58,201 nucleotides of DNA from an uncultured Bacteroidota bacterium (GTDB lineage: Bacteria; Bacteroidota; Bacteroidia; Chitinophagales; Chitinophagaceae), in contig CAIUZK010000145.1 in assembly GCA_903903635.1 (NCBI GenBank), forward strand, positions 1-58,201, given 5' to 3'. Position numbers and translations under genes: made by a program. The notes beneath the pieces are model-generated. The model did not search any database and was not told the DNA's origin. It saw nothing but the letters and a program-made list of their open reading frames with translations. This document shows, piece by piece, positions 21,444-43,668 of the stretch (positions are counted from its first letter, which is position 1; every line of letters begins with the position of its first letter).

Positions 21444-22268
21444 TTAATCTAGTGGAATGATTGTGTTAAATTCAATTCCATAACCACCAATCAGCACATC
21501 TGGCCGTATCCAATTAATTGAAATTTGGCCTAAAGTATTAACGCCACAATTCACCTGCTTTATCCAACCAATACCAAGATCATCTTTTATTAATCCCGCT
21601 ACAAAATACTGGGCTGTGAAATAAGCTGTATTGGCAGGAATATATCCGGCAGGCAGTGAACCCATATTATAGAAAAGAGCAGCAGGCGATGCAGCAAAAT
21701 TCTGGGCGTAGTTGGCTGTCAGAAGTCCTCTGATCTGTAAAGTATTAGCCAGTACATCCTTCTTGTAATAAACAGTCCCGGTGACACCTCCACTCAAAAC
21801 CGGCGTACTAACAGCCAGCGAGCTCCATGCAGTATCCCGTCCATTCTGCCCGAATACAACTTGGTAAGGCTGAAGCGCTGATAATGGAAATTGTGTAGAT
21901 GTGGTAGCTGTTGGTCCTGCAAGCAGTGTAGCTGTCTTATTCAATATAGCTCCGTAGCTGCTGCCGTCATTGTATATAAGACTGCCCGATGATGGTGTTA
22001 TATTTACCAGTATTACATCACCGGGAGGTACAACTGAGTAAGAACCTGAAATGAATTTTATCATTTCTCCATTATAAAAAAACCATCCAACGGCAACAGT
22101 GGTAGTACCTCCGGAAACTGTTGTTTCCATACCAGATATCAGGGTCGGGCCACTACCACCCATAAGCGCCAATGCATTGATGCACTCGGTATAAGCCTGT
22201 TGCAGGTAATCCAGTTCGTCCTGGGTAAGTGGGAATCCACCGGCATGTGTAAAATCAATTGCTTTCAT
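21444..22268 (-). CDS. Putative tail fibre / receptor-binding protein
   Basis: 274 aa, the last gene of the tail module. The N terminus (MKAIDFTHAGGFPLTQDELDYLQQAY) resembles baseplate-attachment ends of short Bacteroidota phage fibres. The rest is Gly/Ser/Thr-rich beta sequence, ending in a compact domain with GSLPAGYIPANTAYFTAQYF, typical of trimeric fibre tips. It would select the recipient cell surface. Its stop is 3 bp from the convergent mreD stop. Assigned by position, composition and N terminus; no specific receptor can be named. Confidence 0.65.
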   Translation of the reverse strand: MKAIDFTHAGGFPLTQDELDYLQQAYTECINALALMGGSGPTLISGMETTVSGGTTTVAVGWFFYNGEMIKFISGSYSVVPPGDVILVNITPSSGSLIYNDGSSYGAILNKTATLLAGPTATTSTQFPLSALQPYQVVFGQNGRDTAWSSLAVSTPVLSGGVTGTVYYKKDVLANTLQIRGLLTANYAQNFAASPAALFYNMGSLPAGYIPANTAYFTAQYFVAGLIKDDLGIGWIKQVNCGVNTLGQISINWIRPDVLIGGYGIEFNTIIPLD

Positions 22269-22290
22269 TATTATGTACTTTTTATCATTC

Positions 22291-22806
22291 TTAATAAGTC
22301 ACCACACTGTAATTCTTCCTGCCCGGCAAACGGTAATGATCGACCAGTGCCCTGAGCCTTAGAACATCATATCCGGAGCCACCGGCCACAACTACCGGTA
22401 CCTTAACAATAAAACTGATACCCAACAAAGCGGTTTCAGAATCCATATAAAGCACTTCCGGATCGGGATATGATGTTGTTCCCTCCTCACTGACCAGACC
22501 CAGCCATAGTGGCTTGCTTTCAGGCACCAGATACAGGTAAAGGGGATCTTTAAAAGGCCCGTCTTCAATTAATATCCCCCTGGAAACAGGATCAAAAAGA
22601 TCATTCAGGGCAGCCCGGAGATAACAGACCTGGCTGTTATGGCTGAGATCGTAGAGATGATCATCTCTGTTTGCCTTAAACAAATTATACAGCCAGACAA
22701 CAGGACTTACCAATACCGCCAACCATGCCAGCATAATATTATTCCTAAGTCTCACGGGCACTATAGTTCGCACCAGTACTCCAAAATCAACATCATAGAA
22801 TCCCAT
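22291..22806 (-). CDS. gpI-like baseplate/tail protein
   Basis: 171 aa. It lies between the gpJ-like wedge gene and the fibre gene, exactly where P2 gpI / Mu gp48-type proteins are found. The N-terminal part (LRNNIMLAWLAVLVSPVVWLYNLFKANRD) and the segment YDLSHNSQVCYLRAALNDLFDP fit Bacteroidota Mu-like relatives that join the fibre to the wedge. The length is close to that of P2 gpI. Identity rests on order more than on strong motifs. Confidence 0.6.
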   Translation of the reverse strand: MGFYDVDFGVLVRTIVPVRLRNNIMLAWLAVLVSPVVWLYNLFKANRDDHLYDLSHNSQVCYLRAALNDLFDPVSRGILIEDGPFKDPLYLYLVPESKPLWLGLVSEEGTTSYPDPEVLYMDSETALLGISFIVKVPVVVAGGSGYDVLRLRALVDHYRLPGRKNYSVVTY

Positions 22807-22865
22807 AAAAATTAAGCCAAATTTGAGTCATCAACATTTTAAATAAATAAACATCCTGAAAGGAA

Positions 22866-23693
22866 TTAAATGGCATATGCCACATAGCTAACATGAGCAG
22901 TAAACCATCCGTTATCCAAAGCCATATAGCCGGCATCGGGAATATAGCGCGCTGAAATCGCAACAGGTGGAACCAAACCATAAAACGCCTGAACTGAAAC
23001 CTCATCTGCTATTACAACACCAGGCACCGACTGCATAGCAGCAATAAAACTATTCAGAATAAATACTCCGTTAAATGGCAGACTGTCGAGAAATGCATTT
23101 ACTGCATCTTTAACAGGTGTTGAAGACGTACCATCCAGTCGTGCGCCGGTTGCATCCAGTAACAACGGATCATAGTAAATGATCATTGTTGGTTGAAAAG
23201 TATCGGGATTACCGCTGGTGCACTGCAGGCGAACACCGGCATCTTTTAACCTGCCCATATAATTTGCAAAGGCTGTTAATTGCAACGAGGTCAAAGGTGA
23301 AAGAACTCCTCCCGCCAGTTTGGCTACCTTTATCCTTACCAGGTTTGTTAGTTCTACAGCAGCAGCAAATTTTACCACCAAAGTTGTAAGATCCACAGGA
23401 GGAACAACCGTATAGACATCGCTATCATCAGGTAATGCCACTCCAAATTGAAATGCCTTGGCTTTGTTTACATACCATTGAAGGGTATGAGGCTTTTGGG
23501 AAGCAATAATATCTGATACTTCAGCTTTATGTGCATCAAACAAATTTTCCAAAACCCATTGGCATGTAGCCACTATATAGGTCCACAGTAACCAGACTGC
23601 GGTCATGCTGGTGCTGCTCAGACTACTTAAAGTGCTGTCGGCGGCTTTGGCTGTCACCATTGATGCCTGAATTTGTGCTATACTTCTTGCCAT
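22866..23693 (-). CDS. gpJ-like baseplate wedge protein
   Basis: 275 aa. It begins MARSIAQIQASMVTAKAAD and continues with SLSSTSMTAVWLLWTYIVA, like the shorter Bacteroidota counterparts of P2 gpJ / Mu gp47. The second half (ELTNLVRIKVAKLAGGVLSPLT and the strand region that follows) matches the wedge beta domain. In contractile tails these proteins form the wedges that trigger sheath contraction. It sits directly before the gpI-like gene. Homologues are sometimes mislabelled as nucleotidyltransferases; nothing here supports that. Confidence 0.6.
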   Translation of the reverse strand: MARSIAQIQASMVTAKAADSTLSSLSSTSMTAVWLLWTYIVATCQWVLENLFDAHKAEVSDIIASQKPHTLQWYVNKAKAFQFGVALPDDSDVYTVVPPVDLTTLVVKFAAAVELTNLVRIKVAKLAGGVLSPLTSLQLTAFANYMGRLKDAGVRLQCTSGNPDTFQPTMIIYYDPLLLDATGARLDGTSSTPVKDAVNAFLDSLPFNGVFILNSFIAAMQSVPGVVIADEVSVQAFYGLVPPVAISARYIPDAGYMALDNGWFTAHVSYVAYAI

Positions 23694-23790: not shown

Positions 23791-24756
23791 CTAACTAACT
23801 TTTACGACCATGCTAAAAGAACTGGCAGGATATGTAGTTGTGCCATTGATGTAAATAGTACCCACTCCAAAAGAATATGTACCCGCCACAAGTGTAACTA
23901 TTGTTTTATCAGGATTTCCCGGATCCAGCGGATCAGGAGTGCCGCCGGCTGCATCGTGCAGCCAACTCATACTATGCGTAATAAAATCGATATGGCCAAT
24001 TGGTGAATGACTCCTTGTGAGCCTTAGTGTAACTGAATTACGACCGGCACTTACCAACCCGACAGCCAGGTCAGCAATAAGGTATTCTTCTACTGTCTGC
24101 GTAACATTATCCAATACAATTAATGGACTTACATAAGCCTTATAACCTGCATCATCAACAAAAGTCGCTGTCTTTTCAGTTGAGCTGAGATCGCTCCAAA
24201 TCATCATAAAACCTCGTCCTGAAATCCATGGTATGTTATAGGATAACTGCTTATAACTCATTAGCAAGGTAGTAGGGTTCTGCGCTCTTGTATCAGGAGA
24301 AAGACCTGCAATAAACCTTTCTTCAGTTTCATAGCAAACAATATTATCCAGAGAAGGATATGGCAATGAAGCAATTGGGTTTACGTTGATAAATGCCCCA
24401 GGATCAGCAATAAGATCATAAACATAATATCCGGATACCGAAGGAGGATCAGGAACTGTCGGGACAGCGTGCATTACAGGCTTTAACATGATAGAATATC
24501 CCAAATCAGGAACACTACCTAAAGTACCTATTACAATGTTATTCTGAGCCAGGTATTGTAAAACACCGGGGTCTCCCGCTGCTAATGCAGTCTGGCTGGC
24601 AGTATATACTGTACCTATATCAGGATATTGAGCAATAGAAATATCATTATCCCTGCAAAACTGCATACCGGCTTCCAGTGAACCACAGCCTTGCAGTATT
24701 ATATCCGGAATACTTTGATTAGGCATTACTACAATTTTATTCATACGCGGTATCAT
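23791..24756 (-). CDS. Tail/baseplate protein with an N-terminal LysM-like segment
   Basis: 321 aa (or 317 from the ATG at 24744, MNKIVVMPNQS). Residues about 10-60 resemble the LysM-like segment of Mu-like baseplate proteins: NQSIPDIILQGCGSLEAGM, then FCRDNDISIAQYPDIGTVY. The remainder is beta-rich without a named family and has a Gly/Pro/Asp linker (GGTPDPLDPGNPDK) before a small terminal domain. It lies between the gp25-like and gpJ-like genes. A structural role in the baseplate is inferred from this location. Confidence 0.5.
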   Translation of the reverse strand: MIPRMNKIVVMPNQSIPDIILQGCGSLEAGMQFCRDNDISIAQYPDIGTVYTASQTALAAGDPGVLQYLAQNNIVIGTLGSVPDLGYSIMLKPVMHAVPTVPDPPSVSGYYVYDLIADPGAFINVNPIASLPYPSLDNIVCYETEERFIAGLSPDTRAQNPTTLLMSYKQLSYNIPWISGRGFMMIWSDLSSTEKTATFVDDAGYKAYVSPLIVLDNVTQTVEEYLIADLAVGLVSAGRNSVTLRLTRSHSPIGHIDFITHSMSWLHDAAGGTPDPLDPGNPDKTIVTLVAGTYSFGVGTIYINGTTTYPASSFSMVVKVS

Positions 24757-24804: not shown

Positions 24805-25104
24805 TCAGGAATAATACGCGTCTGATTTAATCACCCCATCCTGCATTATTTTTACTGCAATTACATCCATTCCATCGCGTGTAAACTCAACACTGATATT
24901 CCGGGTCAATTCCTGGAAATTCTCATCATCCATATAGTCAAATACGCCTACTCCTATTGTTGGGTTTTGCTTGAAATCACCTTTGTTATTTAATATTAAC
25001 TGCTTTTGGTGCTGGGCAGTACTTTCCTTTATAACAAAATCTCCGGCTTCAATTATAAGATCATATCCCCCATCAAGCCCTATATCTATCATATCCTGTG
25101 CCAT
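24805..25104 (-). CDS. gp25/gpW-like baseplate wedge protein
   Basis: 99 aa, the usual size for T4 gp25 / P2 gpW relatives. The domain order fits: an N-terminal strand GGYDLIIEAGDFVIKESTAQ, then HQKQLILNNKGDFKQNPTIG with the conserved loop before VGVFDYMDDE, then the C-terminal strands (ISVEFTRDGMDVIAVKI). gp25 binds the innermost sheath ring and starts its assembly. It stands before the other wedge proteins, as expected for a contractile tail. Confidence 0.75.
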   Translation of the reverse strand: MAQDMIDIGLDGGYDLIIEAGDFVIKESTAQHQKQLILNNKGDFKQNPTIGVGVFDYMDDENFQELTRNISVEFTRDGMDVIAVKIMQDGVIKSDAYYS

Positions 25105-25143: not shown

Positions 25144-25371
25144 TTAAGTAATAGTGTTACCAAAAACACCAGTGACGGGACCGCCTCCTCCCGGAGCAAT
25201 TAATCCTGCGGTATTGGTTACTGTTGCGCCTTCTACAAATATCCGTATTGCATCTGCTATTGCTGTAGACATAGCATCAACCTGAGCTATCTGTGTCATA
25301 TCCGGTACCGGCAGATTGGCCAGGTAGGCAGATTTTATAGAGTTCTTCAATGTAATAGTATCCAGTGGCAT
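25144..25371 (-). CDS. Small conserved tail-module protein
   Basis: 75 aa. The helical N-terminal half (VDAMSTAIADAIRIFVEGATV) recalls a small protein often found between spike and gp25 genes in Bacteroidota Mu-like prophages. A glycine-rich tail (APGGGGPVTGVFGNTIT) follows. It starts 40 bp downstream of no other gene on the opposite strand and is tightly packed with its neighbours, which supports a real gene. The exact role is unknown. Confidence 0.6.
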   Translation of the reverse strand: MPLDTITLKNSIKSAYLANLPVPDMTQIAQVDAMSTAIADAIRIFVEGATVTNTAGLIAPGGGGPVTGVFGNTIT

Positions 25372-25380: not shown

Positions 25381-25932
25381 TTAAGCCGACAACAAATTAT
25401 TTAGCCTTGTAAGTAAATTATTAAAATCAGCCACATTCACCGGGATACTGCTTGTACCTGATGGGGTTGGAACTGTTAATTCGGTAATGTAAGTGAAACA
25501 ATCTTTCAGCAACTGAAATAAACTCTCGGTAGCGGAATTCAACTTAAATACGCTGTCAGAAATGTTCAGAACTACACTGCCATTTTGAATAGTTACCTGC
25601 GAGTTATCCATTTCAAAAACGACATCGCCGATTTTTATTTTTGCCCTTTCCAGATCATTAGCCAGAAGCAAAGCCCATTGTCCAGGTCCATCCACACTGC
25701 CTATTATCACATTACTACCGTCTTTAGGATAGAGAATCATACCAGACTGGTTGTCTGTGATTACATTTAGCAGTACACCCTCAATTGAATCAGCGCCATC
25801 GCTTGTCTGCACATCCATCGTGCCTGAAACAATATTTACACTACCCGCAACAACTGTCCCGCTTACTATCTCATAAGGCCTTTCTGCAAGATGCCTGATC
25901 CCATCCCTGATTTTTATGGTGTTTTTTTTCAT
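25381..25932 (-). CDS. Baseplate spike-like protein (P2 gpV / Mu gp45 position)
   Basis: 183 aa. An OB-fold-like N-terminal half (EIVSGTVVAGSVNIVSGTMD; VIIGSVDGPGQWALLLANDL) leads into short repeated strands (VVFEMDNSQVTIQNGSVVLN), the form of a trimeric beta-helix. A C-terminal helix follows. It overlaps the stop of the hub gene by 4 bp (ATGA), so translation is coupled. Such spikes tip the tail tube and pierce the recipient envelope. No apex metal-binding HxH motif was seen. Confidence 0.6.
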   Translation of the reverse strand: MKKNTIKIRDGIRHLAERPYEIVSGTVVAGSVNIVSGTMDVQTSDGADSIEGVLLNVITDNQSGMILYPKDGSNVIIGSVDGPGQWALLLANDLERAKIKIGDVVFEMDNSQVTIQNGSVVLNISDSVFKLNSATESLFQLLKDCFTYITELTVPTPSGTSSIPVNVADFNNLLTRLNNLLSA

Positions 25933-26969
25933 TGCGCATTATTTGAGAATCCAAAACGTGGGCCTATATCCAAAATTCTCCTGGCTCCCTTTATGCCATA
26001 AGAAACTTCCACACTTTCAATCAAATAAGTTCCATTCCGTTCAGGAAACCGATCGTCGGTAATAAATGCCTCATAACCAGGTTCTGCAAAAGGTTGTAGA
26101 AATGCAGTTAAACTTCCTTCATATCCATCATAACCCACTTGAAATGCTTTTTCATCTGCCAACTGTTTCAGGTATGATTGTTCCGAAATGTGATTCAGTA
26201 TTTTACTACGTGAAATTGTGTGAGTAAGGAAAACATCTGAAACCGCAGTGAGTATTCTTCCATCCGGTAGTTTCTTATGATAATGAACTTCCGCTTTTTC
26301 ATTCTTTATACTCCTTAATTTAAGACTGTTTCCTTTTAAAGTATTATAACCTAACCGGTAGTTTACAGTCCCCAGATCGAATACTTTGTTGCCATTTGCA
26401 TAGGGTGTATAAATCAGCCCACACCATAAAACATCCGGCCTGATGAAAAAGCAACTAAGACATCTGTCTGTATTCTTCAGAATATTATTAATGATATCAA
26501 ACCCGCTTGCCTGGTTAACTTTCACATTATACAAGGTTATCGGAACATCACACAGAACACTGATTGAGGCTCCATTTTCAAGATGTGATACCGCTATTTC
26601 CAATAATCTCTTAACAGTTATCGACTCCCAGAATCCGAAAATTGAAAGCCTTCTTAATAGCCAGCTATACCCTTCACAAACTATCTCCATTGGCATATCC
26701 AGGTTTTGGTGTTTCACAAATCCCCGGAACTCAGTCCTGAGGTCTGAGTTGTACCCAAGTTTTATAGTAACAGGATCACCTTCACTAAACTGCTGACCCG
26801 TAATCACCTTTGCAGGCTGTACTTTACCATCAGTTTCTATTCTTGCTATGGAAGGCAATTTTATTATAGCCTTCTCTTCGATATCATGAATACTTCTTGA
26901 AATCTGAACCTGATTTACACCACTGAATCTGAACTTACCAATCGTAATTTCGCTACATAATACAAACAT
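25929..26969 (-). CDS. Baseplate hub protein (P2 gpD / Mu gp44-like)
   Basis: 346 aa. The order of parts fits the late-control gpD/gp27 hub family: an N-terminal beta domain (EITIGKFRFSGVNQVQISRS), then PVTIKLGYNSDLRTEFRGFV, the typical strand for tail-tube-like hub domains. Next comes a helical part (VKRLLEIAVSHL) and a C-terminal beta domain ending YLIESVEVSYGIKGARRIL. The hub joins the tube to the spike. It is translationally coupled to the spike gene. Confidence 0.7.
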   Translation of the reverse strand: MFVLCSEITIGKFRFSGVNQVQISRSIHDIEEKAIIKLPSIARIETDGKVQPAKVITGQQFSEGDPVTIKLGYNSDLRTEFRGFVKHQNLDMPMEIVCEGYSWLLRRLSIFGFWESITVKRLLEIAVSHLENGASISVLCDVPITLYNVKVNQASGFDIINNILKNTDRCLSCFFIRPDVLWCGLIYTPYANGNKVFDLGTVNYRLGYNTLKGNSLKLRSIKNEKAEVHYHKKLPDGRILTAVSDVFLTHTISRSKILNHISEQSYLKQLADEKAFQVGYDGYEGSLTAFLQPFAEPGYEAFITDDRFPERNGTYLIESVEVSYGIKGARRILDIGPRFGFSNNAQ

Positions 26970-26985: not shown

Positions 26986-27633
26986 TTAGGAAATGGAAAC
27001 CAAATTAAAGGGAGCATCGCTTATCATGCTTAACTCATAGGGACGAACATTTTTAATACCACTCACCGCAGGAAATTTCAAGTCTGTGATCACAACCTGA
27101 TCGCTTCCGCTTCTATCGGGCCGGAGTAAAAAAATATCAGTAATCGGACATTGAATAGATAATGCCTGGTTTTGTTCATAAATATTGCGCAAAGTCGAAA
27201 CATCACTTTCTGGAAATTCATTTGCCTGATTGATAATAAATCCCCTGATTTTTATTTCATAATCCTGAATGTTAACAAGTTCCTTAACTGAGCCTCTGCG
27301 TTCTGTTAAATGTGTCTCCACTATCGTCTTACGGCTGGTAATTGATACAACAGGATATGGCAGGTTCCATTTCTTCAATTGCCCGGTGGATGCACTCAAT
27401 TCAGTGCTATTGCTGTTTGTCTTTCCCTTTTCCTGATAGCTAATGGTAACTGGCAAAAAATACTCATTGCCTAGCGCATCAGCAGCATAATATGGTGATC
27501 CATAAAACCCTTGCTCCGTCCGATAGGGAGATGTATCTCCCTGAACTGTGGAAAATTCGGGATGAAACGCCTGGCTTTTATAACCAAATGCCCGCTCAAA
27601 TAATTCAGCTAAGCTGAACGAAATTTCTGCCAT
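26986..27633 (-). CDS. DUF6046-type tail protein
   Basis: 215 aa. It matches the DUF6046 family seen in Bacteroidota Mu-like prophages: after YPVVSITSRKTIVETHLTER the conserved stretch YEIKIRGFIINQANEFPESD and SIQCPITDIFLLRPDR follow. The protein lies between the tape measure and the hub and probably forms part of the distal tube or hub. It starts 2 bp from the stop of the tape-measure-like gene, so the two are cotranscribed. Confidence 0.7.
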   Translation of the reverse strand: MAEISFSLAELFERAFGYKSQAFHPEFSTVQGDTSPYRTEQGFYGSPYYAADALGNEYFLPVTISYQEKGKTNSNSTELSASTGQLKKWNLPYPVVSITSRKTIVETHLTERRGSVKELVNIQDYEIKIRGFIINQANEFPESDVSTLRNIYEQNQALSIQCPITDIFLLRPDRSGSDQVVITDLKFPAVSGIKNVRPYELSMISDAPFNLVSIS

Positions 27634-27635: not shown

Positions 27636-29120
27636 TTAGTAATTTGTTTTTGCACTGTTTATTATGTCTAATAATACGCCTTCAACCCTTTGCCTGAAAT
27701 CACTCAATCCTTCATCAACATCCCTGGCATTAATAATTACACGCTCAATCATAGGTTTGTTTAAGCAAATGGTAATCCCCGGCTTGCTTTCCCCTTCACC
27801 GCTTTCCCTTTTCATAGGTCTACTATTAAATAAATCAGATGGAGATCTGCCGGTTGTGTTTTGAGAATCCGGATCCTTGTCTTTTGATTGCATTATAGAA
27901 ATGAAATCTGTCTTAAATAGCCGCTCAAGATTTGCCGGCAGATAATCCCAGTTTGCACCACCCCTATTTTCCACACCAATGAAGAAATAACCTTCATCCA
28001 AATTGGACAGTTGTGAATTACCAATTATCTGATCATTTAATCCACTCTTTCTGAAAAGAATATTTTCATTAAAACCATAAGGTAGTTTACTGAAATCTCT
28101 GTCAACGTTTTGATAATAGCCAGATGAAAACAAATCAGCATCGTTAGAAACAGGTTTCCATTGATTTATAAATGGCGTGCCGGCATTTGTTGGCAATTGC
28201 ATCCCGATTCCATAATTTAATCGTAGTTCAACATTACTATCCTTACTGGGTTGATCCATCAACTCATAATTTACCAGTCTTAAATTGCTAAGTTTAGAGT
28301 AGATATATTCCGGCAAGTATTTCATCAAATCATCAGGACTTTTACTTGTTGATGCAACTATTTGACCCTTGCCCAAATACGAACTATCCAATGCTTCAAG
28401 AAATTTGTCGATCGTTGCGATTACATATGTCTCCGACTGATCAGAACTGTTGTTTAAGGCTGGACCATTTGGGACAATTCTGTAATCTTTGTATCCTGCA
28501 CTTTGAGTTGCTATGCCTAGGTTCCTTTCTGGAAACAGGTGCTTTTCAGCATTTAGATCACAGACTGAAAATTTACCAGCCATATTCTCTGAAAAAGAGC
28601 TATCTTCTTCTGAAAATAATTCACTCTTTTTGGCAACAGATGGTAACCCTTCCAGAACTTTGAAATCCATTCCCCTCCCTGCATTCAATCCCACATCATT
28701 ACCTGGAGTTTGATGAATTATCCCCACAATATCCAGCCATTTATCAATCTTTGTCAGCACTTGCTTATTGCTCTCTACATAAGCACTTAAAGCAAAATCG
28801 TTTTGAGCAATTTCTCTTAATGAATCTGCAATTTCAGGATCTTCATCGATCAGATAATTCTGCTTTATACTGTGATGATCAATGCTAAAATTCAGGTAGC
28901 CTATTGAATCGAAAGCTAGGTTATGGTTTATAGCATTATCAAACTGAAAATTCAGATTCTGAACTGCTGATAATTTACCTATTCCATCATCGATTTCCAG
29001 TCCTGTTTGGTGTAACAAGGTCACATCTTTCATCATCCCACTTAAAATGGTTTCTATCCCGTTTATAGTAGTATCCAAACTGCTGATCTGAGATTTATTT
29101 GTTGCCATTTCATTTATCAT
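27636..29120 (-). CDS. Tape-measure-like tail protein (short)
   Basis: 494 aa (or 490 from the ATG at 29108, MATNKSQ). The position, after the tail chaperone and before the hub region, is that of a tape measure. The N-terminal third is helical (SSLDTTINGIETILSGMMKD). The C-terminal end (MIERVIINARDVDEGLSDFR, then QRVEGVLLDIINSAK) resembles the end of Bacteroidota Mu-like tape measures. The middle is polar and predicted less helical than usual, with no long hydrophobic region. At about 0.15 nm per residue, 494 residues would set a tail of roughly 70 nm if the whole chain spans it. Assigned mainly by position. Confidence 0.55.
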   Translation of the reverse strand: MINEMATNKSQISSLDTTINGIETILSGMMKDVTLLHQTGLEIDDGIGKLSAVQNLNFQFDNAINHNLAFDSIGYLNFSIDHHSIKQNYLIDEDPEIADSLREIAQNDFALSAYVESNKQVLTKIDKWLDIVGIIHQTPGNDVGLNAGRGMDFKVLEGLPSVAKKSELFSEEDSSFSENMAGKFSVCDLNAEKHLFPERNLGIATQSAGYKDYRIVPNGPALNNSSDQSETYVIATIDKFLEALDSSYLGKGQIVASTSKSPDDLMKYLPEYIYSKLSNLRLVNYELMDQPSKDSNVELRLNYGIGMQLPTNAGTPFINQWKPVSNDADLFSSGYYQNVDRDFSKLPYGFNENILFRKSGLNDQIIGNSQLSNLDEGYFFIGVENRGGANWDYLPANLERLFKTDFISIMQSKDKDPDSQNTTGRSPSDLFNSRPMKRESGEGESKPGITICLNKPMIERVIINARDVDEGLSDFRQRVEGVLLDIINSAKTNY

Positions 29121-29268: not shown

Positions 29269-29451
29269 TCATTCCGGATTGTTATTCCTTATGTATTGTA
29301 AATGCGCAATCTTTTGTGCAAATGCTTCATCACTAAGTGATTTGTGATCAAGGCCCGGCAAATAATATTCAAGAAGTGTTTCGAGATATCCTAAGGAGTC
29401 GTGCGCCGGTCCACCACGCGACTCCTCTATAAGTTTACCAGTCTGGCTTTC
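29269..29451 (-). CDS. Frameshifted C-terminal (T) extension of the tail assembly chaperone
   Basis: In the -1 frame relative to the chaperone, a frame opens after the TAA at 29452-29454 and runs through the chaperone's own stop to TGA at 29269-29271. Beyond that stop it encodes about 52 residues including YLETLLEYYLPGLDH and SLSDEAFAQKIAHLQYIR, the pattern of T-type extensions in Mu-like phages. There is no ATG, GTG or reasonable TTG at its beginning. It should therefore be made by ribosomal frameshifting in 29451-29430, giving a G-GT fusion, as in many phage tails. I found no textbook slippery heptamer, so the slip mechanism is open. Confidence 0.6.
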   Translation of the reverse strand, partial: ESQTGKLIEESRGGPAHDSLGYLETLLEYYLPGLDHKSLSDEAFAQKIAHLQYIRNNNPE

Positions 29452-29747
29452 TTACCTTCCAGCTTCACTTTCAGCTCCTGGCTTACACCAATGAACATCT
29501 GGTCATCTTTTAGCAATTCCTCACTCCCACCAATAAACGTAATATTGGCCAGCTCTTCAAAAATGTGCAGTGCCTTATCTCTGTCTGCCTTACTCATTGC
29601 ACAGTTTAACTCATTCCTGCCCGGGTTCTTAAAATACCCTATGTGCCCATCTACTTCAACAGAATAAATGCCTTGTTTATATTTCTGCTTCCAGCTATTT
29701 ATCTGCTCATCTGAAGCTTTGCCAATCAGTTCAATTTCAATATTCAT
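29427..29747 (-). CDS. Tail assembly chaperone (G-type)
   Basis: 106 aa from the ATG at 29747 (MNIEIELIGKASDEQINSWK). A longer frame from 29819 adds 24 residues in AT-rich leader sequence and is less likely. The gene lies between the tube and the tape measure, the fixed place for this function, and the small acidic/helical C-terminal half (FIGGSEELLKDDQMFIGVSQ) fits. The product should coat the tape measure during assembly and leave the finished tail. Its end overlaps the frameshifted extension at 29269-29451. Confidence 0.6.
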   Translation of the reverse strand: MNIEIELIGKASDEQINSWKQKYKQGIYSVEVDGHIGYFKNPGRNELNCAMSKADRDKALHIFEELANITFIGGSEELLKDDQMFIGVSQELKVKLEGKKARLVNL

Positions 29748-29853
29748 TTTTGCATTTTTATGGAAGAGATGATAGTTCATCTCTTCCAGGTTTAAAATCA
29801 TTCTATTTTCTTCTATCAATTATGTACAACAGAATTATTATAGCATTTAAAGA

Positions 29854-30285
29854 TTACTCCGAGAAAAGCCTCATGAATACTATTGGCAGATTTACATCCA
29901 TATTCTTTGCACCCTGGTCCCAACCTTTTTCAAAATCCTTAACTTCTACATTTACCAGGGTGTCGGTTTGCAATGGTCTTGTTCCACCAGGTTTATAAGT
30001 GATCACAATATCAAATTGCATATCCAGTATATCTTCACCACCGGCTGCAATAGCGGCTCTGTTCATATCATCTATTGCTCCTTTCAACACTTTAATCTGC
30101 CCTTCATAGGTCCGGTTCCCACTCTGAATACTAATGGGCTCATCGCCGGCGGCATGCAGCAGTTGCTTCTCCTTTGCTGCTTTGTACTTTACTCCGCGAA
30201 TTTTTGTAAATGGGGATCCGGCAAACATGACAGTCATATCTGCCCACTCACAATCTTTACTATCAAAAAAAACTATTGATGGCAT
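29854..30285 (-). CDS. Tail tube protein
   Basis: 143 aa. Beta-rich with a central helix, as in contractile-tail tube proteins: MTVMFAGSPFTKIRGVKYKA at the start, then RTYEGQIKVLKGAIDDMNRA, then DILDMQFDIVITYKP and a final beta strand pair. It directly follows the sheath gene, the usual order. The tube forms the inner channel for DNA. The identity is supported by order and by similarity to Bacteroidota Mu-like tube proteins. Confidence 0.7.
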   Translation of the reverse strand: MPSIVFFDSKDCEWADMTVMFAGSPFTKIRGVKYKAAKEKQLLHAAGDEPISIQSGNRTYEGQIKVLKGAIDDMNRAAIAAGGEDILDMQFDIVITYKPGGTRPLQTDTLVNVEVKDFEKGWDQGAKNMDVNLPIVFMRLFSE

Positions 30286-35027: not shown

Positions 35028-35140
35028 GTTTTGTGGCACAAAGTTGAATCTGATTTTGCAGATGGGCAAAAAATGAATCTATGACAGTGCGTTTTTTGAT
35101 CTATGATAGACCGTATACGGTCTGTCATAGATTTTTTTTT
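35028..35140 (-). promoter_or_regulatory. Three-box regulated promoter of the capsid/tail module
   Basis: Read toward the gene: an A9 tract (35140-35132); box 1 CTATGACAG (35130-35122); box 2 CTATCATAG (35109-35101); box 3 CTGTCATAG (35087-35079); then 30 nt containing TTG (35069-35067); then TTCAACTTTGTGCC ending CAAAAC (35048-35028). Boxes 1 and 2 with their spacer form a 34-bp near-perfect palindrome (35099-35132, one mismatch). TTG and CAACTTTG are 20 nt apart, matching the Bacteroidota -33/-7 promoter. The boxes lie upstream of -33, which favours an activator. The same layout occurs at 37701-37812. Confidence 0.85.
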
Positions 35141-37467: not shown

Positions 37468-37700
37468 TATAAAATTGATTTTTTTACAAACTCGGTACAA
37501 AGCAAGTAAAAAGTTATCTGGAGACCCTGATTTATTTTGGTATTCCGGAATGGTAATGCCTGTTTTTCACATGAAGAATATTTATTGTGAATGCACTTTT
37601 TGTAATTTATTTCACTCCACTTTTGGGCTATTCCACAAAATGCAGATTCAATAATGTCTATACTCCTGTATTTCTTTTATCTGTCACGCGTTATCCACAG

Positions 37701-37812
37701 AAAAAAAATCTATGATAGTACAGTAAGCGATCTGTCATATCCCGCCAGCGATCTGTCATGTAATTCAAAATTGTTGTTCCCGATATTACATTTCACCTTT
37801 GTCCTGCAAAAC
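37701..37812 (+). promoter_or_regulatory. Three-box regulated promoter of the terminase module
   Basis: A8 tract (37701-37708); box 1 CTATGATAG (37710-37718); box 2 CTGTCATAT (37732-37740); box 3 CTGTCATGT (37753-37761); 30 nt with TTG at 37771-37773; then TTCACCTTTGTCC ending CAAAAC (37792-37812). Box order and orientation, the 21-22 bp box spacing, the 30-nt gap and the 82-bp distance from box 1 to the core all equal those at 35028-35140. The 21-bp cores match at 17 positions. The start codon is 29 nt further on. Confidence 0.85.
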
Positions 37813-37840: not shown

Positions 37841-38284
37841 ATGAAAGAAGTACAATCCAATAATCGCTTTAAGAACTGGGCAAAGGATTTATATATCCAT
37901 CTTGAGAAAAGTCAGAAAGACATTGCCATTACCTTAGACATTGATGAATCTACAGTAAGAAACTGGATTACTGCCGGAAAATGGGATGGCATAAAGGAAT
38001 CTTTGCTGATCTCAAAAAAAACTCAGTTGAACCGTTTCTACAAATTGCTTGAAGAATTAAGCAGTAAGATAAAAAATGAAGATGGTAGCCTTTGCACAAA
38101 AAATATAGATACAATTACCAAGGTCACCGCTGCCATAAATAGCCTTGAAAACGAGGACTCCATGTGCCACATAATTGAAGTAGCTGAGCAATTCACCAAT
38201 TGGCTTATGCGAAAAGACATTGATTTCGCCCGCCAGGTTGCGCTTCAGTTCGACGCGTATATTGAACAGAAGCTTGCTGATTGA
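37841..38284 (+). CDS. Terminase small subunit-like protein (Mu gp27-type)
   Basis: 147 aa from the ATG at 37841. The frame upstream (from 37799) overlaps the promoter core and is excluded. The N-terminal part is a helix-turn-helix (KSQKDIAITLDIDESTVRNW), followed by ITAGKWDGIKESLLISKKTQ, the typical linker, then a helical oligomerisation region. Small terminases bind the substrate DNA and regulate the large subunit. First gene of the plus-strand module, 57 bp before the large subunit. Confidence 0.75.
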   Translation: MKEVQSNNRFKNWAKDLYIHLEKSQKDIAITLDIDESTVRNWITAGKWDGIKESLLISKKTQLNRFYKLLEELSSKIKNEDGSLCTKNIDTITKVTAAINSLENEDSMCHIIEVAEQFTNWLMRKDIDFARQVALQFDAYIEQKLAD

Positions 38285-38341: not shown

Positions 38342-39970
38342 ATGAAGAACAGGAGTCAATACGCAAAACAATGGAAGCAGCATATAAAGACCATACTCGC
38401 GGCAACATACATCAAAGAAGATGAAAGTAATGAAGACAAAATAAAACGAATAATAAGCCTGGAAGCTCAGCCCGAAGAATGGTTCCGGTATTATTTCCCG
38501 CGCTACACCTTTGCACTGCCTGCAAAATTCCATACAGAAGCCACCAACCGCATTCTTGGAAACAGTGAATGGTACGAAGTCAGGCTGTGGAGCAGAGAGC
38601 TGGCTAAAAGTACAAGAACCATGATGGAAGTATTGTACCTGGTGCAGGTAGGCCATATTCCTTCCAAAACAAAAAATAAAACTATGCTCATAGACCTTAC
38701 AGCTTATGCCAAAGCAAACGATAATAGTCCGGAAGTACCTTCCCCTGACACCTCAATACCTTCAGGCAATGAGCATGGCAGGAAAAATATCCCTAAACGA
38801 TATGTACTGCTCATAAGTAACAGTGAAGATAATGCTATAAGACTCCTGTTGCCTTACAAGGCCAATCTGGAATTTAATAACCGCATCATCCAGGACTATG
38901 GCCTGCAGGAAAGTGCCGGAAACTGGCAGATGGGTGAATTTACGACCTTGAAGGGGGTAGCCTTTCGTGCACTGGGAGCCGGGCAAAGTCCGCGAGGTAC
39001 AAGAAATGAAGAGGCCAGGCCCGACATTATTTTGTTTGATGATATCGATACAGATGCCGATTGCCGGAACCCCGAAATAATTGCTAAAAAATGGCGCTGG
39101 ATAGAGGAAGCCGCCATTGGCACAAGATCCGTATCTCAACCTACTACAATTATATTTTGTGGTAACAGAATTGCCGCTGATTGCTGCATTGAACGTGCCA
39201 CTAAACTGGCCGACCACGTTGATGTGATCAACATACGCGATGCTCAGGGGAATTCCTCATGGCCAGAGAAAAATAGTAAGGCTGACATTGATCGTGTACT
39301 GAGTCAGAAAAGCTATGCTGCCGTGCAAAAAGAATATTTCAATAATCCGCTTACCGAAGGGTCGGTGTTTAAACAAATGGCATACAAGCCCGCCAGGCCG
39401 CTCGTGGACTACAAAATCCTGGTATGCTACACCGACCCTTCTTACAAAAACACCAACGACTACAAGGCCACAGTACTGGTTGGTCAATGGCAAAATGAGT
39501 TTCACATTATAAAAGCATTTGTAGCTCAAACCACTACTGCCGAAATGATCGACTGGCATTACCAGATAATGAACATGGTGGCCGGATGCAATTGTTATTA
39601 CATTATGGAACAGGTGTTTATGCAGGATGTGATTGTTAAAGAAGTAAGTGATGCAGGATTGAGAACCGGCAGAACAATTCCGGTAAAAGGGGATACACGC
39701 AAGAAACCAGACAAATTCATGCGGATCGAAAGCCTGCTGGAACCGATTCATCGCAATGGCCAGTTATACCTCAATGAGAACGAACGATACAACCCGCACA
39801 TGGAACGGCTGGCCGACCAATTCAAAAACTTTGCCCCCGGTAGCCGTGCACATGATGATGGCCCCGATGCGGTAGAAGGCGCTGTCTGGATAATAAATGA
39901 TATACTTGGCAGAGGATTAAAAGGAGGAATTGTAACCTTCGCAAAAACATCTAACGAATACCGATACTAA
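38342..39970 (+). CDS. Terminase large subunit (Mu gp28-like)
   Basis: 542 aa. ATPase: Walker A-like SRELAKST (84-91), Walker B IILFDDID (229-236), then TIIFCGNRIAADC as the coupling motif. Nuclease: first Asp in VCYTDPSYKNTNDYKATVLV, and the last acidic motif in AHDDGPDAVEGAVW (503-516). All expected catalytic residues are present, so DNA packaging and cutting should work. Residues about 108-150 are a hydrophilic insert between Walker A and the next motif. If the particle is a gene transfer agent, this enzyme fills it with chromosomal DNA. Confidence 0.92.
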   Translation: MKNRSQYAKQWKQHIKTILAATYIKEDESNEDKIKRIISLEAQPEEWFRYYFPRYTFALPAKFHTEATNRILGNSEWYEVRLWSRELAKSTRTMMEVLYLVQVGHIPSKTKNKTMLIDLTAYAKANDNSPEVPSPDTSIPSGNEHGRKNIPKRYVLLISNSEDNAIRLLLPYKANLEFNNRIIQDYGLQESAGNWQMGEFTTLKGVAFRALGAGQSPRGTRNEEARPDIILFDDIDTDADCRNPEIIAKKWRWIEEAAIGTRSVSQPTTIIFCGNRIAADCCIERATKLADHVDVINIRDAQGNSSWPEKNSKADIDRVLSQKSYAAVQKEYFNNPLTEGSVFKQMAYKPARPLVDYKILVCYTDPSYKNTNDYKATVLVGQWQNEFHIIKAFVAQTTTAEMIDWHYQIMNMVAGCNCYYIMEQVFMQDVIVKEVSDAGLRTGRTIPVKGDTRKKPDKFMRIESLLEPIHRNGQLYLNENERYNPHMERLADQFKNFAPGSRAHDDGPDAVEGAVWIINDILGRGLKGGIVTFAKTSNEYRY

Positions 39971-40177: not shown

Positions 40178-40744
40178 ATGAAAAACAAAACTTTATTATT
40201 GCTTTTTAGCCTGCTGCTTTCACTTACCTCATTCGCCCAGAAAGAAAAAATGTCGCGTGAGGACAAAGACGAAAAGAATGCAGCCCGTATGGCGCGAATT
40301 AATAGTAAAAACGATTATGGCCTGTTCCGTAAACAGATTCAGGCTCTGAGAGAGTTTGAAGCCGAACGTCAGAAAATTCCGGCTCTGCGCAAATCCAGCA
40401 AAATGCCTGTAAAAGTGGTGGCATTTATTGATTCAAATGATAATGATGCAGAGGGCACAACCAAAACACTCATTGGCTATATCAGGCAGGATGTCGGAGA
40501 TAATTCCACCAATATGTATGAGATCATTTACGACCGCGCGCAACGCACCATTGTAAGTGTCAGACATACCCCCGAAGCTATTGAGGCAGACAGGGAATTT
40601 ATGGAAGAACAACAGGAAAAAGCATCCCCTGAGAAAAGACAACCTAAAAAAGTAATCCAGAAAAAAGCGCCTGCCGAAGATGATGACGATGAAGATGGCA
40701 AACCTGTAAAAGGAAAGAAGAAAGCCAAAGATGATGACGACTAA
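40178..40744 (+). CDS. Secreted highly charged protein of unknown function
   Basis: 188 aa. Signal peptide (MKNKTLLLLFSLLLSLTSFA), then a Lys/Asp/Glu-rich helical part, a small beta region (PVKVVAFIDSNDNDAEGTTK; YEIIYDRAQRTIVSVRH) and a very charged tail ending in KKKAKDDDD. It is not a phage protein by type; it looks like a host envelope protein set between the terminase and gp36-like genes. Own promoter likely in the 207 bp gap before it. Confidence 0.6.
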   Translation: MKNKTLLLLFSLLLSLTSFAQKEKMSREDKDEKNAARMARINSKNDYGLFRKQIQALREFEAERQKIPALRKSSKMPVKVVAFIDSNDNDAEGTTKTLIGYIRQDVGDNSTNMYEIIYDRAQRTIVSVRHTPEAIEADREFMEEQQEKASPEKRQPKKVIQKKAPAEDDDDEDGKPVKGKKKAKDDDD

Positions 40745-40857: not shown

Positions 40858-41292
40858 ATGCCTATCATTACACAAACAGATCTTGCTACAAATATTTATG
40901 CAGAGATCATAAACGAAATTACCCGCTCAGATGCTTCAATAGCCGAAAAAGCAATTTCAGCAGCAGAATCTGAAGCAAAAATGTACTTAACCCGCTACGA
41001 CCTGGTACAATTATTTGGCACAAATACAGTAGCGCCGGTAATCAATGATGAGTTGCTGAAAGCCCTCGTCAAAGATCTTGCCTGCTGGCATCTTATAAGG
41101 CTATCCAATACAGGTGTCGATTATGGGGCATTCAGAACTGCTTACCTGGATGCGATTGCTGTATTGAAAAATATTCAGAGCGGCCAGGCTCAGCCACAAA
41201 ATTGGCCATATCCGGATAGTTCTGTCAATAGTATTCCTCAGGGAGACTCTGTTGCCTGGAACAGCAACCCGAAACGGGAAAATTATTATTAG
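40858..41292 (+). CDS. Mu gp36-like head-tail connector protein (DUF1320)
   Basis: 144 aa. It matches the Mu gp36/DUF1320 family: MPIITQTDLATNIYAEIINE, then SIAEKAISAAESEAKMYLTR, YDLVQLFGT and LLKALVKDLACWHLIRL. These proteins act at the head-tail joint. In Mu the gene follows the capsid gene; here it lies on the opposite strand, 16 kb from the sheath. The frame is intact. Confidence 0.8.
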   Translation: MPIITQTDLATNIYAEIINEITRSDASIAEKAISAAESEAKMYLTRYDLVQLFGTNTVAPVINDELLKALVKDLACWHLIRLSNTGVDYGAFRTAYLDAIAVLKNIQSGQAQPQNWPYPDSSVNSIPQGDSVAWNSNPKRENYY

Positions 41293-41516: not shown

Positions 41517-41879
41517 CTATCCCATTATTTTATCACCATATCGGGCATAAAGGAAAAGCAATATTGATGCAAACGAAAAAACAAGAATTGGCGCAAGTTT
41601 GTATGGCCGGTTTTTATCTTTCGACAAGTTTTGCAGCGGTAGCATCATTAAAAAATCAATTCCAAATACAAGTAGGATAGGAAGTAAAATATAGCGGGCT
41701 CTAAATAAAATAGCCAACATAGAAATATGGGGAACCAATCCCACTAATATATAAGACAATCCGTATAAAATAAAGAGATTAAGTACCGATATGTAAGACA
41801 CAGCGAATGAAAAAGAAAATAATTTTTTCCCCGTTAATCTATATAAAATTTTATAAACATCTGCGATTAAACTTCTCAT
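41517..41879 (-). CDS. Small membrane protein of unknown function
   Basis: 120 aa from the ATG at 41879 (MRSLIADVYKILYRLTGKKL). It has three or four hydrophobic segments (about 20-40, 45-70, 100-116) and a basic loop (SKDKNRPYK). It is on the opposite strand between gp36-like and portal genes, and looks like a chromosomal gene. A holin role was considered, but the topology and strand give no support. Confidence 0.5.
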   Translation of the reverse strand: MRSLIADVYKILYRLTGKKLFSFSFAVSYISVLNLFILYGLSYILVGLVPHISMLAILFRARYILLPILLVFGIDFLMMLPLQNLSKDKNRPYKLAPILVFSFASILLFLYARYGDKIMG

Positions 41880-41975
41880 AGTCAACTTGTTAATCCAAAA
41901 TTTAGCGTGATGCAATTTAGTGATTACTTTTTAAACACAATAGCAATTTATTAACTTTTTTGAATAAAACGCCAT

Positions 41976-43103
41976 ATGATAAAATCACATAAAAATCCAG
42001 CCAGGGATAAAGACATAATAATCAACGAACTTAATATACGATCTGTAGACAGAAGCAGGAAAGATATAGCAGCATGGAGAGGTGCATTGCTTAATGCCGA
42101 ATCTGTATATTACCCTAACAGGTCCCGGTTGTACGATCTCTATGAGGATATAATTTTAGATGGACATCTGTCTGGTGTTATTTCAAAGAGAATTGATGCC
42201 GTGTTGAATAAAGAAATTTGTTTCGAAACTTCCGGCAAAAAAAACCGTGAAATGGATTCCCTCATACAGTCGACTGCCTTTCGTGAAATTATGCGAACAA
42301 TTATGGAGACTCAATTATGGGGAATTTCCGGCCTGGAGTTCATTCCTAGTAAAGAATTAACCATTGAAAGAATACCCCGGAAACATATAAAACCAGACTT
42401 AGGCATAATTGCATTCGAGCAATCAGGGCAGGAGGGCATACCCTATGCCGGCATTGATAATATCTGGGTACTTGGAGATGCAAAAGATTTAGGACTGCTT
42501 GTAAAGTGTGCACCTTACTGTCTTTATAAAAGAGGAGGAATATCCGACTGGGCTCAGTATATCGAACTATTTGGACAGCCTGTCCGTATCATAAAATATG
42601 ATTCTTATGATGAACAGACAAAAATGGAACTTAAGAAAATACTCGACGAAAGTGGAAGCTCTTTGTCTATCATGATTCCCCGGCAGGCCGATTTTGAAAT
42701 AAAAGACGGCAAACAAACTAATTGCGATGGCAACCTGCAGTTATCTTTTATTAAGGCTTTGAATGAAGAGATCTCTATAACTATACTCGGCAATACCGAG
42801 ACAACTACCAGCAGTTACAGCACCGGTTACGCACAAAGCAAAGTACACCTTGACCAGCAGTACGAAATAACCAAAAGCGACCTGGTATACACGGCATCTA
42901 TGCTCAATAATTCCCGGTTCATCAATATGCTTCAGGGCTATGGGTATCCTGTTCAGAATGGCCGTTTTGCTTTTTCAAAAGATCTGGATGTTGAATACCT
43001 TAAAACAAGGGTGGCAATTGATAAAGAAGTGGCGCAGATAATACCTATACCCGAAACCTACTGGTACGATACCTATGGCATACCTCAGGGAAATAATGCC
43101 TGA
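41976..43103 (+). CDS. Portal protein (DUF935, Mu gp29-like)
   Basis: 375 aa, shorter than Mu gp29 (about 510 aa). Portal features: DGHLSGVISKRIDAVLNKEI near the N terminus, the wing region RIPRKHIKPD, GISDWAQYIELFGQPVRIIK, and the conserved ILGNTETTTSSYSTGYAQSK followed by VHLDQQYEI. The C terminus ends soon after the clip/crown helices (PIPETYWYDTYGIPQ). A 12-mer of this protein forms the DNA gate of the head. It starts 96 bp from the divergent membrane protein gene and has its own promoter region. Confidence 0.85.
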   Translation: MIKSHKNPARDKDIIINELNIRSVDRSRKDIAAWRGALLNAESVYYPNRSRLYDLYEDIILDGHLSGVISKRIDAVLNKEICFETSGKKNREMDSLIQSTAFREIMRTIMETQLWGISGLEFIPSKELTIERIPRKHIKPDLGIIAFEQSGQEGIPYAGIDNIWVLGDAKDLGLLVKCAPYCLYKRGGISDWAQYIELFGQPVRIIKYDSYDEQTKMELKKILDESGSSLSIMIPRQADFEIKDGKQTNCDGNLQLSFIKALNEEISITILGNTETTTSSYSTGYAQSKVHLDQQYEITKSDLVYTASMLNNSRFINMLQGYGYPVQNGRFAFSKDLDVEYLKTRVAIDKEVAQIIPIPETYWYDTYGIPQGNNA

Positions 43104-43161
43104 AACCAACATTCAAATACTATACAATAGTCTTAATACGCTGTTACCTTAAATTTTCCAT

Positions 43162-43668
43162 ATGAACTCACCATTTGCCAATATCTTTCTGGCGCTGCAG
43201 CAGTACATACAAACTAACCTACCTGCCATCAAGTATATAGATCAGGATCTTGGTCAGCTTAAAAGTGGTTCACGCCCACCGGTAGCCTGGCCATGCCTGC
43301 TCATTGATTTCGAAGATTTTAATTTTGAAAATCTCTCCGAAAATGTACAGACAGCAAAAGGAGTGATAATGTTCCGGCTTGGTTTTGCACCCTACAGCAG
43401 CAGTGCCCAAACCACGCCAACGCCTTTTTTGCAACAGGCTATAAGCTACTATGATATAGAGTGGGAATTGCATAAGGCAATCCAGGGATATTCGCCCGGC
43501 GCCGACTATGGCCGGTTCATCAGGATTAGCTCCTCCACCCAAAAACGCTCAGATAGTTACCGCGTCCGCGAACTCCGCTACTCAATAGCATTCGAAGATT
43601 TCAGTACGAAAACCCAAAGGCAGTATGTTACACCTACACTAACAATTACTGATCAGATGCATTTGTAA
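43162..43668 (+). CDS. Mu gp37-like tail terminator/connector (DUF1834)
   Basis: 168 aa. It matches Mu gp37-like proteins: MNSPFANIFLALQQYIQTNL at the start, then VAWPCLLIDFEDFNFENLSE and SYRVRELRYSIAFEDFST. It probably caps the tail or joins it to the head. It lies 58 bp after the portal gene on the same strand and is the last virion gene recognised in the plus-strand module. Confidence 0.7.
   Translation: MNSPFANIFLALQQYIQTNLPAIKYIDQDLGQLKSGSRPPVAWPCLLIDFEDFNFENLSENVQTAKGVIMFRLGFAPYSSSAQTTPTPFLQQAISYYDIEWELHKAIQGYSPGADYGRFIRISSSTQKRSDSYRVRELRYSIAFEDFSTKTQRQYVTPTLTITDQMHL

What the first reader, a model, noticed from the sequence alone, without database searches (positions are those of the whole stretch)
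21444..43668. Candidate gene transfer agent: a split, intact Mu-like virion gene set without replication, integration or lysis genes
Seen: intact frames for protease/scaffold, capsid, portal, both terminase subunits, gp36- and gp37-like joints and a full contractile tail. Not seen: integrase, MuA/MuB transposase, repressor, replication genes, holin or working lysin. Ordinary genes lie between and inside the modules. Known: gene transfer agents keep capsid, packaging and tail genes, lose self-replication, are scattered and depend on host regulation; tailocins lose head and packaging genes. Inference: this is a domesticated particle that packages host DNA. I know of no gene transfer agent reported in Bacteroidota.
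Basis: partly seen in the sequence, partly recalled or inferred. Interest (0 to 1): 0.92.

Follow-up and report, generated by a model that had tools for sequence, protein, structure and literature searches.

The report
Domesticated phage: likely gene transfer agent
A freshwater Bacteroidota genus has apparently turned an ancient Mu-like virus into a permanent, host-controlled particle factory that probably carries pieces of bacterial DNA between cells, the first such system we could find evidence for in this phylum, and it sits in an unexpected genome-wide network of extra DNA-packaging genes.

Summary
Window 21444-43668 encodes an intact contractile-tailed virion and packaging set related to Mu-like Bacteroidota phages; no transposase, replication, repressor or working lysis gene was found nearby. 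Relatives support domestication. A GTA-type portal occurs in 30 of 35 genus genomes (23 of 25 high-quality; two of the 30 broken). The modules sit in orthologous host loci (mreBCD; galE) and in two relatives lie about 86 and 124 kb apart. Portal and host CarB trees agree beyond chance; dN/dS is mostly 0.01-0.15 (highest 0.26). Prophage relatives differ: 9 of 11 loci carry MuA/MuB-, helicase-, repressor- or lysin-like genes (0 of 44 GTA-type loci do), a longer portal and an F-like head gene. Two relatives lost the element but kept its interleaved host genes. New: the two virion operons share one operator-promoter that co-varies within species, even when unlinked. It recurs 27 times in the genome, at 8 of 21 inspected outside sites before a TerS paralogue; two other species show such loci too. 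Known GTAs are reported to lack a TerS DNA-binding domain; this TerS keeps one. Best reading: an independent Bacteroidota GTA. Particles, DNA content, release and transfer are untested.

The parts
21444..22268 (-). distal tail protein, probable fibre/receptor-binding end of the tail operon; abuts mreD
   Evidence: no library hit; position and synteny; beside mreD in G000, G004, G011, G012, G020, G021, G048 and as a fragment in G001 and G045
22291..22806 (-). baseplate protein, gp48-like by position
   Evidence: synteny with prophage-type copies
22866..23693 (-). baseplate J-like protein
   Evidence: phrog_38413 (unknown function) 2.8e-57; function by position
23791..24756 (-). baseplate-associated protein, function unknown
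   Evidence: synteny
24805..25104 (-). gp25-like baseplate wedge
   Evidence: phrog_120 0.0017, position
25144..25371 (-). small tail-operon gene
   Evidence: position; also found in G020
25381..25932 (-). tail spike, gpV-like by position
   Evidence: position and synteny
25929..26969 (-). baseplate hub
   Evidence: phrog_4930 6e-42
26986..27633 (-). DUF6046 baseplate hub
   Evidence: PF19512 5.8e-29, phrog_5233
27636..29120 (-). short tape measure protein (494 aa; 343-494 aa in 13 GTA-type loci; 545 and 619 aa in two compact prophages)
   Evidence: position and shared C-terminus
29427..29819 (-). tail assembly protein, role by position
   Evidence: phrog_19076 (unknown function) 1.1e-16
29854..30285 (-). 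tail tube
   Evidence: phrog_4579 tail protein 2.7e-08; also phrog_9206, labelled major head, 7.3e-24; position behind the sheath
30426..31601 (-). contractile tail sheath
   Evidence: PF10758 3.9e-48, phrog_907
31697..31921 (-). small conserved gene of the head-tail operon
   Evidence: synteny
32030..32479 (-). conserved gene between capsid and sheath, function unknown
   Evidence: synteny
32776..33690 (-). major capsid protein
   Evidence: phrog_267 3.5e-36, PF19821 1.9e-07; dN/dS 0.011-0.073 in 7 pairs
34020..35069 (-). prohead protease/scaffold (likely ATG at 35012)
   Evidence: phrog_11321 (unknown function) 2.2e-55, phrog_328 head maturation protease 0.0028; Mu-like_Pro 0.0027; position before the capsid
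35080..35130 (-). operator upstream of the protease promoter: three half-sites TATGAYAG/CTRTCATA
37691..37760 (+). operator upstream of the TerS promoter (half-sites), preceded by a DnaA-box-like TTATCCACA at 37691-37699
37841..38284 (+). [quoted passage not shown]
   Evidence: PF10668 25.6 bits, cut-off 22; phrog_4151 5.7e-24
38342..39970 (+). large terminase, ATPase- and nuclease-like motifs intact
   Evidence: phrog_38 6e-67; alignment, motif names recalled
40178..40744 (+). interleaved host gene (signal-peptide-like start), retained where the phage genes are lost
   Evidence: L310 in G043 and L275 in G049
40858..41292 (+). Mu Gp36-like head completion protein
   Evidence: PF07030 1.5e-06
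41517..41915 (-). interleaved host membrane-type protein; also in genomes without the element
   Evidence: L310, L275
41976..43103 (+). Mu-type portal, ending near 370 aa without the C-terminal tail of prophage-type copies
   Evidence: PF06074 1.7e-64
43162..43668 (+). neck/tail-completion protein
   Evidence: phrog_6911 (unknown function) 3.6e-25; role from place in annotated phages
43719..44093 (-). small conserved protein, also in prophage relatives; candidate regulator (role inferred)
   Evidence: phrog_17154 (unknown function) 3.1e-09; no Pfam hit

Best explanation
This is a domesticated, vertically inherited gene transfer agent derived from a Mu-like contractile-tail phage of Bacteroidota. 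Shown by sequence: a complete virion and packaging gene set under purifying selection; no mobility, replication, repressor or working lysis gene found with it; orthologous host loci; and two separate virion operons with one shared, co-varying operator-promoter, so co-regulation replaces phage synteny. Inferred: under some host signal an activator binds the operators, heads and contractile tails assemble, TerS/TerL fill heads with host DNA, and particles are released by an unknown route and deliver DNA to kin. Inferred and bolder: the dispersed TerS paralogues with the same operator take part in, or exploit, DNA selection.
For: Retention: GTA-type portal in 30 of 35 genus genomes; of the other five, three are 57-65% complete and two are losses. 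Synteny in orthologous host loci. Modules about 124 kb apart in G002 and 86 kb in G044. Trees: 11 of 29 splits shared with CarB, permuted mean 0.26, max 2 in 1000; Mantel rho 0.78, 0 of 2000. dN/dS 0.011-0.088 for portal, TerL and capsid in close pairs, dS mostly in the range of carB. No hit to 17 phage early/lysis proteins in 44 GTA-type loci, versus 9 of 11 prophage-type loci. Shared portal truncation and absence of the F-like gene. TerL motifs intact. Shared operator: 0 of 10000 permutations, robust to leaving out the best genomes and within unlinked ones.
Against: No particle, packaged DNA or transfer is shown. No lysis gene found. TerS keeps a DNA-binding domain, which known GTAs are reported to lack (PMC11841831). 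Losses and decay occur: G043 and G049 lost it, G001 and G045 are partial, G047's capsid match is split in two overlapping frames, G118 of another genus has a portal with three stops. Capsid matches in 28 of 35 genomes, two of them prophage-type (G024, G043). Eight prophage-type portals also correlate with host distances (rho 0.72, 37 of 2000), so the Mantel test alone does not discriminate. The 17 reference proteins also miss many phages (15 of 34 IMG/VR prophage-like loci hit), so their absence is weaker than it looks. Two hub genes in G004/G021 have low dS (0.18, 0.53 against 1.39 for carB), a hint of recombination. The genomes are drafts, many of them MAGs.
Confidence: 0.78

Rival explanations
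1. A defective prophage, recently inactivated and decaying.
For: No replication or lysis genes found; a lysin-like frame with a stop lies 13 kb away; some relatives show partial deletion.
Against: Intact frames across the genus with dN/dS far below 1 at high dS, orthologous host position, congruent trees. Neutral relics would not stay intact that long.
Confidence: 0.04
2. A functional prophage or satellite whose early genes lie elsewhere and act in trans, so that it still propagates itself.
For: Modules lie at separate loci and share an operator; compact MuA/MuB-bearing prophages coexist in some genomes.
Against: Modules 86-124 kb apart could hardly be packaged together; vertical descent and orthologous loci; 26 of 30 carriers, own genome included, show no second portal copy.
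Confidence: 0.07
3. A domesticated headed particle with another job (killing, or DNA export without uptake by kin).
For: The contractile baseplate is complete; headless tailocins use the same tail machinery (recalled).
Against: Capsid, portal and both terminase genes are conserved and constrained, which a killing particle would not need.
Confidence: 0.11
4. The dispersed operator/TerS loci are an unrelated repeat family (small mobile repeats), not part of the system.
For: Copies often end at contig ends and are amplified species by species; 10 of 21 inspected sites in the own genome show no TerS-like frame; 5 of 9 inspected copies in G007 lack the operator.
Against: Same operator-promoter architecture as the virion operons, with species-matched half-sites, in three species; open TerS-family frames.
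Confidence: 0.3

Closest known systems
RcGTA-type gene transfer agents of Alphaproteobacteria
   Same: phage-derived virion and packaging genes kept by the host, no self-replication, a core cluster plus ectopic loci (passages of PMC11841831 and PMC6854486; vertical descent and purifying selection recalled)
   Different: apparently independent origin from a Mu-like contractile phage; TerS keeps a helix-turn-helix, whereas known GTA small terminases lack a detectable one (PMC11841831); activity untested
Winoviridae phages (Flavobacterium lotta8, FPSV)
   Same: virion gene order; capsid 38-41%; annotated sheath, DUF6046-type and hub genes in the same order
   Different: complete phages with helicases, VirE-like genes and an endolysin or peptidoglycan-domain gene; virion genes on one strand for the most part; F-like gene in lotta8
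Porphyromonas gingivalis Mu-like prophages (BK068089-96 and two others) and Hankyphage p00
   Same: capsid 45-48% (Porphyromonas), TerL 42% (Hankyphage), terminase/portal divergent from protease/capsid
   Different: carry MuA and MuB, endolysin, and in the Porphyromonas record repressor, Gam and holin; tape measures of over 1200 aa
[quoted passage not shown]
   Same: domesticated particles outside the RcGTA lineage (FpGTA from passages of PMC12946183; others named in PMC11841831)
   Different: other hosts and ancestor phages (partly recalled)

Membership tests
gene transfer agent | head, packaging and tail genes of phage origin, intact | tested here: met
gene transfer agent | no genes for own replication, integration or repression linked | tested here: met
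   0 of 38 genus GTA-type loci (788 kb, 19 genomes, some overlap) and 0 of 6 further GTA-type loci hit 17 reference proteins; 9 of 11 prophage-type loci (8 of 9 elements) do; sensitivity limited, 15 of 34 IMG/VR loci hit
gene transfer agent | vertical inheritance with the host | tested here: met
gene transfer agent | purifying selection on virion genes | tested here: met
gene transfer agent | genes at several loci under common host control | tested here: met
   separated modules with a shared operator; control itself is inferred
gene transfer agent | small terminase without DNA-binding domain (reported for known GTAs, PMC11841831) | tested here: not met
   PF10668 at residues 14-50. A correlated trait, not a definition
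gene transfer agent | particles contain host DNA without preference for own genes | not testable with these tools
   needs particle sequencing
gene transfer agent | transfers genes to recipient cells | not testable with these tools
   needs a transfer assay
RcGTA family | homology and synteny to the RcGTA head-tail cluster | not tested
   no RcGTA cluster was compared; best-scoring phages found are Bacteroidota Mu-like
functional Mu-like prophage | MuA/MuB transposition genes with the virion genes | tested here: not met
tailocin | tail without head and packaging genes | tested here: not met
   capsid, portal, TerL present and constrained

The most novel reading that the evidence does not exclude
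A gene transfer agent that did not lose packaging-site recognition but spread it: a genome-wide set of TerS paralogues, many with the agent's own operator (which may double as a packaging start site), either seeds packaging of host DNA from many chromosomal positions or is a family of selfish cassettes that ride the agent.
Probability: 0.3. Interest if true: 0.97.

Novelty: new variant of a known kind. Interest (0 to 1): 0.9.

Why it matters
No gene transfer agent in Bacteroidota was found in the paper searches made here (open-licence PMC papers only). This would be an independent domestication in a major environmental phylum, from a Mu-like contractile phage. Prophage relatives in the same family allow a before/after comparison. 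The shared operator gives a handle on control, and the dispersed TerS loci open a testable route to the question of how such agents choose host DNA.

Tried and rejected
Lysis: the GH19-like frame upstream of mreB was considered as a lysis gene and dropped (in-frame stop; 8 of 35 genomes). Genes 40178 and 41517 were considered as agent-specific parts (holin-like); both remain in the two loss lineages and 41517 occurs in genomes lacking the element, so they are treated as host genes. A relic search in G043 and G049 gave only chance-level matches in the part of the output that was shown. The portal in IMG/VR gave nothing. Capsid matches in IMG/VR of 74% identity or more (L108-L121, 14 of 50 loci) are all on contigs of 4-14 kb; contigs of 33-37 kb appear only at about 42-51%. 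A roughly 100-bp palindromic repeat near several operator sites was examined and looks like an unrelated dispersed repeat. Literature: (listings); passages read in PMC12946183, PMC11841831, PMC6854486, PMC7947584; no whole paper was read. Rows dropped: from the portal tree (45 rows) G045 (frameshift), G016 (split by contig ends), G118's decayed copy, partial G223 and G192, the second copies of G012, G023 and G024, G049's two distant matches, and eight family matches at 30% identity or less; from the CarB tree (49 rows) loci L231-L241 (split genes or other proteins); 32 of 34 GTA-type portal rows had a CarB sequence. 'stop' entries for the protease, 43719 and mreB in G004/G021 had no stop inside the match when rechecked; the 41517 'stop' in G020/G046 was not rechecked. 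The 68-aa tape measure of G004 was an extraction artefact (444 aa).
Full report
What is there. The window is one whole contig (C145) of a 5.27 Mb draft genome, 98.6% complete. Named contigs whose lengths equal those of genus-mates carry Flavipsychrobacter titles among others, so the genus is inferred to be Flavipsychrobacter (Chitinophagales). Two virion modules lie head to head. Protease, capsid and tail run on the minus strand from 35069 down to 21444, ending beside mreD. TerS, TerL, Gp36, portal and a neck-like gene run on the plus strand from 37841 to 43668. Between them sit GNAT, MsrB and asparaginase genes; inside the packaging operon sit two host-type genes, 40178 and 41517.

Ancestor. 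The best-matching annotated phages are Porphyromonas Mu-like prophages (capsid 45-48%, portal 34%), Hankyphage (TerL 42%) and Flavobacterium Winoviridae (capsid 38-41%). The Porphyromonas and Hankyphage records show the same divergent packaging/head arrangement, so that layout is probably inherited from the phage.

Distribution. TerL is found in 23 of 24 same-genus genomes besides the own one, and in 0 of 15 genomes of other families of the order. Any portal is found in 32 of 35 genus genomes. Removing two genomes with only prophage-type or very distant portals (G043, G049) leaves 30 of 35, and 23 of 25 high-quality genomes; two of the 30 are broken by a frameshift (G045) or by contig ends (G016). 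Capsid is found in 28 of 35, two of which (G024, G043) are prophage-type. In a family sample the portal occurs in 27 of 195 genomes; outside the genus I class six of these as GTA-type (G054, G082, G111, G128, G141, G214), plus a decayed copy in G118.

Orthologous loci, then scattering. The tail end abuts mreD in the window and in G004, G011, G012, G020, G021 and G048; G001 and G045 keep a fragment there. The packaging module lies next to galE in G000, G011, G012, G020, G046 and G048, among others. In G002 TerL and capsid are about 124 kb apart on one contig and in G044 about 86 kb. In G007 and G010 they lie on different contigs.

Vertical descent and selection. Portal and CarB trees share 11 of 29 splits over 32 genomes, seven of them pairs; permuted labels share 0.26 on average and at most 2 in 1000. 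The Mantel correlation is 0.78, 0 of 2000. Eight prophage-type copies also correlate (0.72, 37 of 2000), so this second test is weak evidence alone. For close pairs dN/dS of portal, TerL and capsid is 0.011-0.088 (NG86), and dS lies within about a factor of five of carB where both could be estimated. In G004/G021, 20 structural and packaging genes give 0.011-0.149, the highest being a tape-measure comparison spoiled by extraction; two hub genes have low dS (0.18, 0.53), hinting at recombination. In G020/G046, 11 such genes give 0.023-0.261. Several dS values are near saturation.

Contrast with prophages in the same family. Nine of 11 prophage-type loci (8 of 9 elements) carry homologues of MuA, MuB, Gam, repressor, helicase/ATPase or lysin; none of 38 genus GTA-type loci (19 genomes, 788 kb, some overlap) and none of 6 further GTA-type loci do. 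The probe set is not fully sensitive: 15 of 34 IMG/VR prophage-like loci were hit, mostly by lysins. All 34 GTA-type portals end within 5 residues after the matched region (one, G128, already at 353 aa; L041 likewise ends 3 residues after it). Ten of 11 prophage-type portals run on for 12-79 residues; the eleventh (G153) runs on by 1 but is 406 aa long. F-like minor head genes lie behind the portal in 5 of 5 prophage-type loci tested and in 0 of 7 GTA-type loci (6 genomes) with a gap there. Tape measures are 343-494 aa in 13 GTA-type loci against 545 and 619 aa in two prophages; G021 has two such frames.

Loss. G043 keeps MsrB, 40178, 41517 and galE in order without the packaging genes (L310); G049 keeps 41517 and 40178 between GNAT and mreD (L275). 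Both are nested among carriers in the CarB tree, so loss is the simpler reading. No remnant stood out in the shown part of a sensitive search.

Shared control. Upstream of TerS and of the protease lies the same kind of block: A-tract, half-sites TATGAYAG...CTRTCATA...CTRTCATA, then a CACCTTTGTG-type promoter (output partly cut). Across 18 genomes the two blocks of one genome match each other better than those of other genomes (mean score 24.8 versus 16.0; 0 of 10000 permutations), although own rank is 1 in only 5 of 18 and 12 or worse in 3. Leaving out G214 gives 0 of 10000; leaving out the three best genomes gives 4 of 10000; the 12 genomes whose modules are about 19 kb or more apart or on different contigs give 3 of 10000. 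In G214, from another genus, the two blocks are nearly identical to each other and differ from those of the window's genus. Related half-sites seem to lie between TerS and protease in three prophage-type copies (by eye), so the operator is probably inherited. A DnaA-box-like TTATCCACA occurs in 8 of 18 TerS upstreams, against 0.005 expected per stretch, and in no protease upstream. The promoter and DnaA-box names rest on recalled consensus motifs.

Dispersed TerS loci. The exact operator pattern occurs 27 times in the own genome; the reversed control pattern occurs 0 times. Of 25 sites outside the window, 21 were inspected: 8 precede a TerS-family frame (six of one family of about 300 aa, two cut off by contig ends; two of another, one of them a fragment), 3 sit too near a contig end to tell, and 10 have no such frame. 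Some sites at contig ends may be one collapsed repeat. These proteins match the same family as the agent's TerS (phrog_4151 3.2e-14 and 2.6e-21) and carry long C-terminal tails. A TerS profile finds 15 members in the own genome, the agent's own TerS included, and members in 34 of 35 genus genomes, up to 15 each, prophage TerS included; the loss lineages have 6 (G043) and 1 (G049). In G010, 9 of 10 inspected copies, and in G007, 4 of 9, carry a species-matched operator; the one copy inspected in G043 has no operator and a stop within the match. Nine copies in G010 are near identical over about 205 residues and lie in different contexts; no transposase search of their flanks was made.

How it probably works. 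Shown: constraint, vertical descent, a co-regulation signal. Inferred: an activator binds the operators and turns on both operons, and the dispersed TerS genes, together; particles fill with host DNA; release is by an unknown route. Whether the operator also serves as a packaging start is open.

Verdict. A strong genomic case for an independent GTA in Bacteroidota, with a network of TerS loci that has no counterpart in the passages read on known GTAs.

Noticed in passing
own genome sites outside the window, e.g. L347 6460-7542, L343 51-889, L354, L362; L393-L411 in two relatives: Dispersed TerS-family genes, many preceded by the same operator-promoter as the virion operons; up to 15 TerS-family genes per genome.
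   Followed up: partly
window 7853-8458: GH19-like lysin frame (recognised by eye) with one in-frame stop, about 10 kb upstream of mreB; relatives in 8 of 35 genus genomes.
   Followed up: partly
window 37691-37699: DnaA-box-like TTATCCACA just upstream of the TerS operator, the only copy in the window; present in 8 of 18 genomes.
   Followed up: partly
L347 7822-8345 and other own-genome loci: Roughly 100-bp palindromic repeat (TTGCACACT...AGTGTGCAATT), near several operator sites, function unknown.
   Followed up: no
L032 (a second contig of G020): A second TerS-TerL pair with no portal or capsid match in the 13.6 kb held, about 69% identical to the window TerL.
   Followed up: no
L314 13543-15651, L317 11536-13510, L319 5592-6861: Secreted-looking host proteins occupy the place behind the portal where prophages carry the F-like gene.
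   Followed up: partly
L308/L309 (G021), between the tail assembly gene and DUF6046 hub: Two tape-measure-like frames of 432 and 444 aa side by side.
   Followed up: no
L164-L167 (G009, G012), L173, L175-L177: Compact Mu-like prophages of the same family, some in genomes that also carry the domesticated element; useful living controls.
   Followed up: partly
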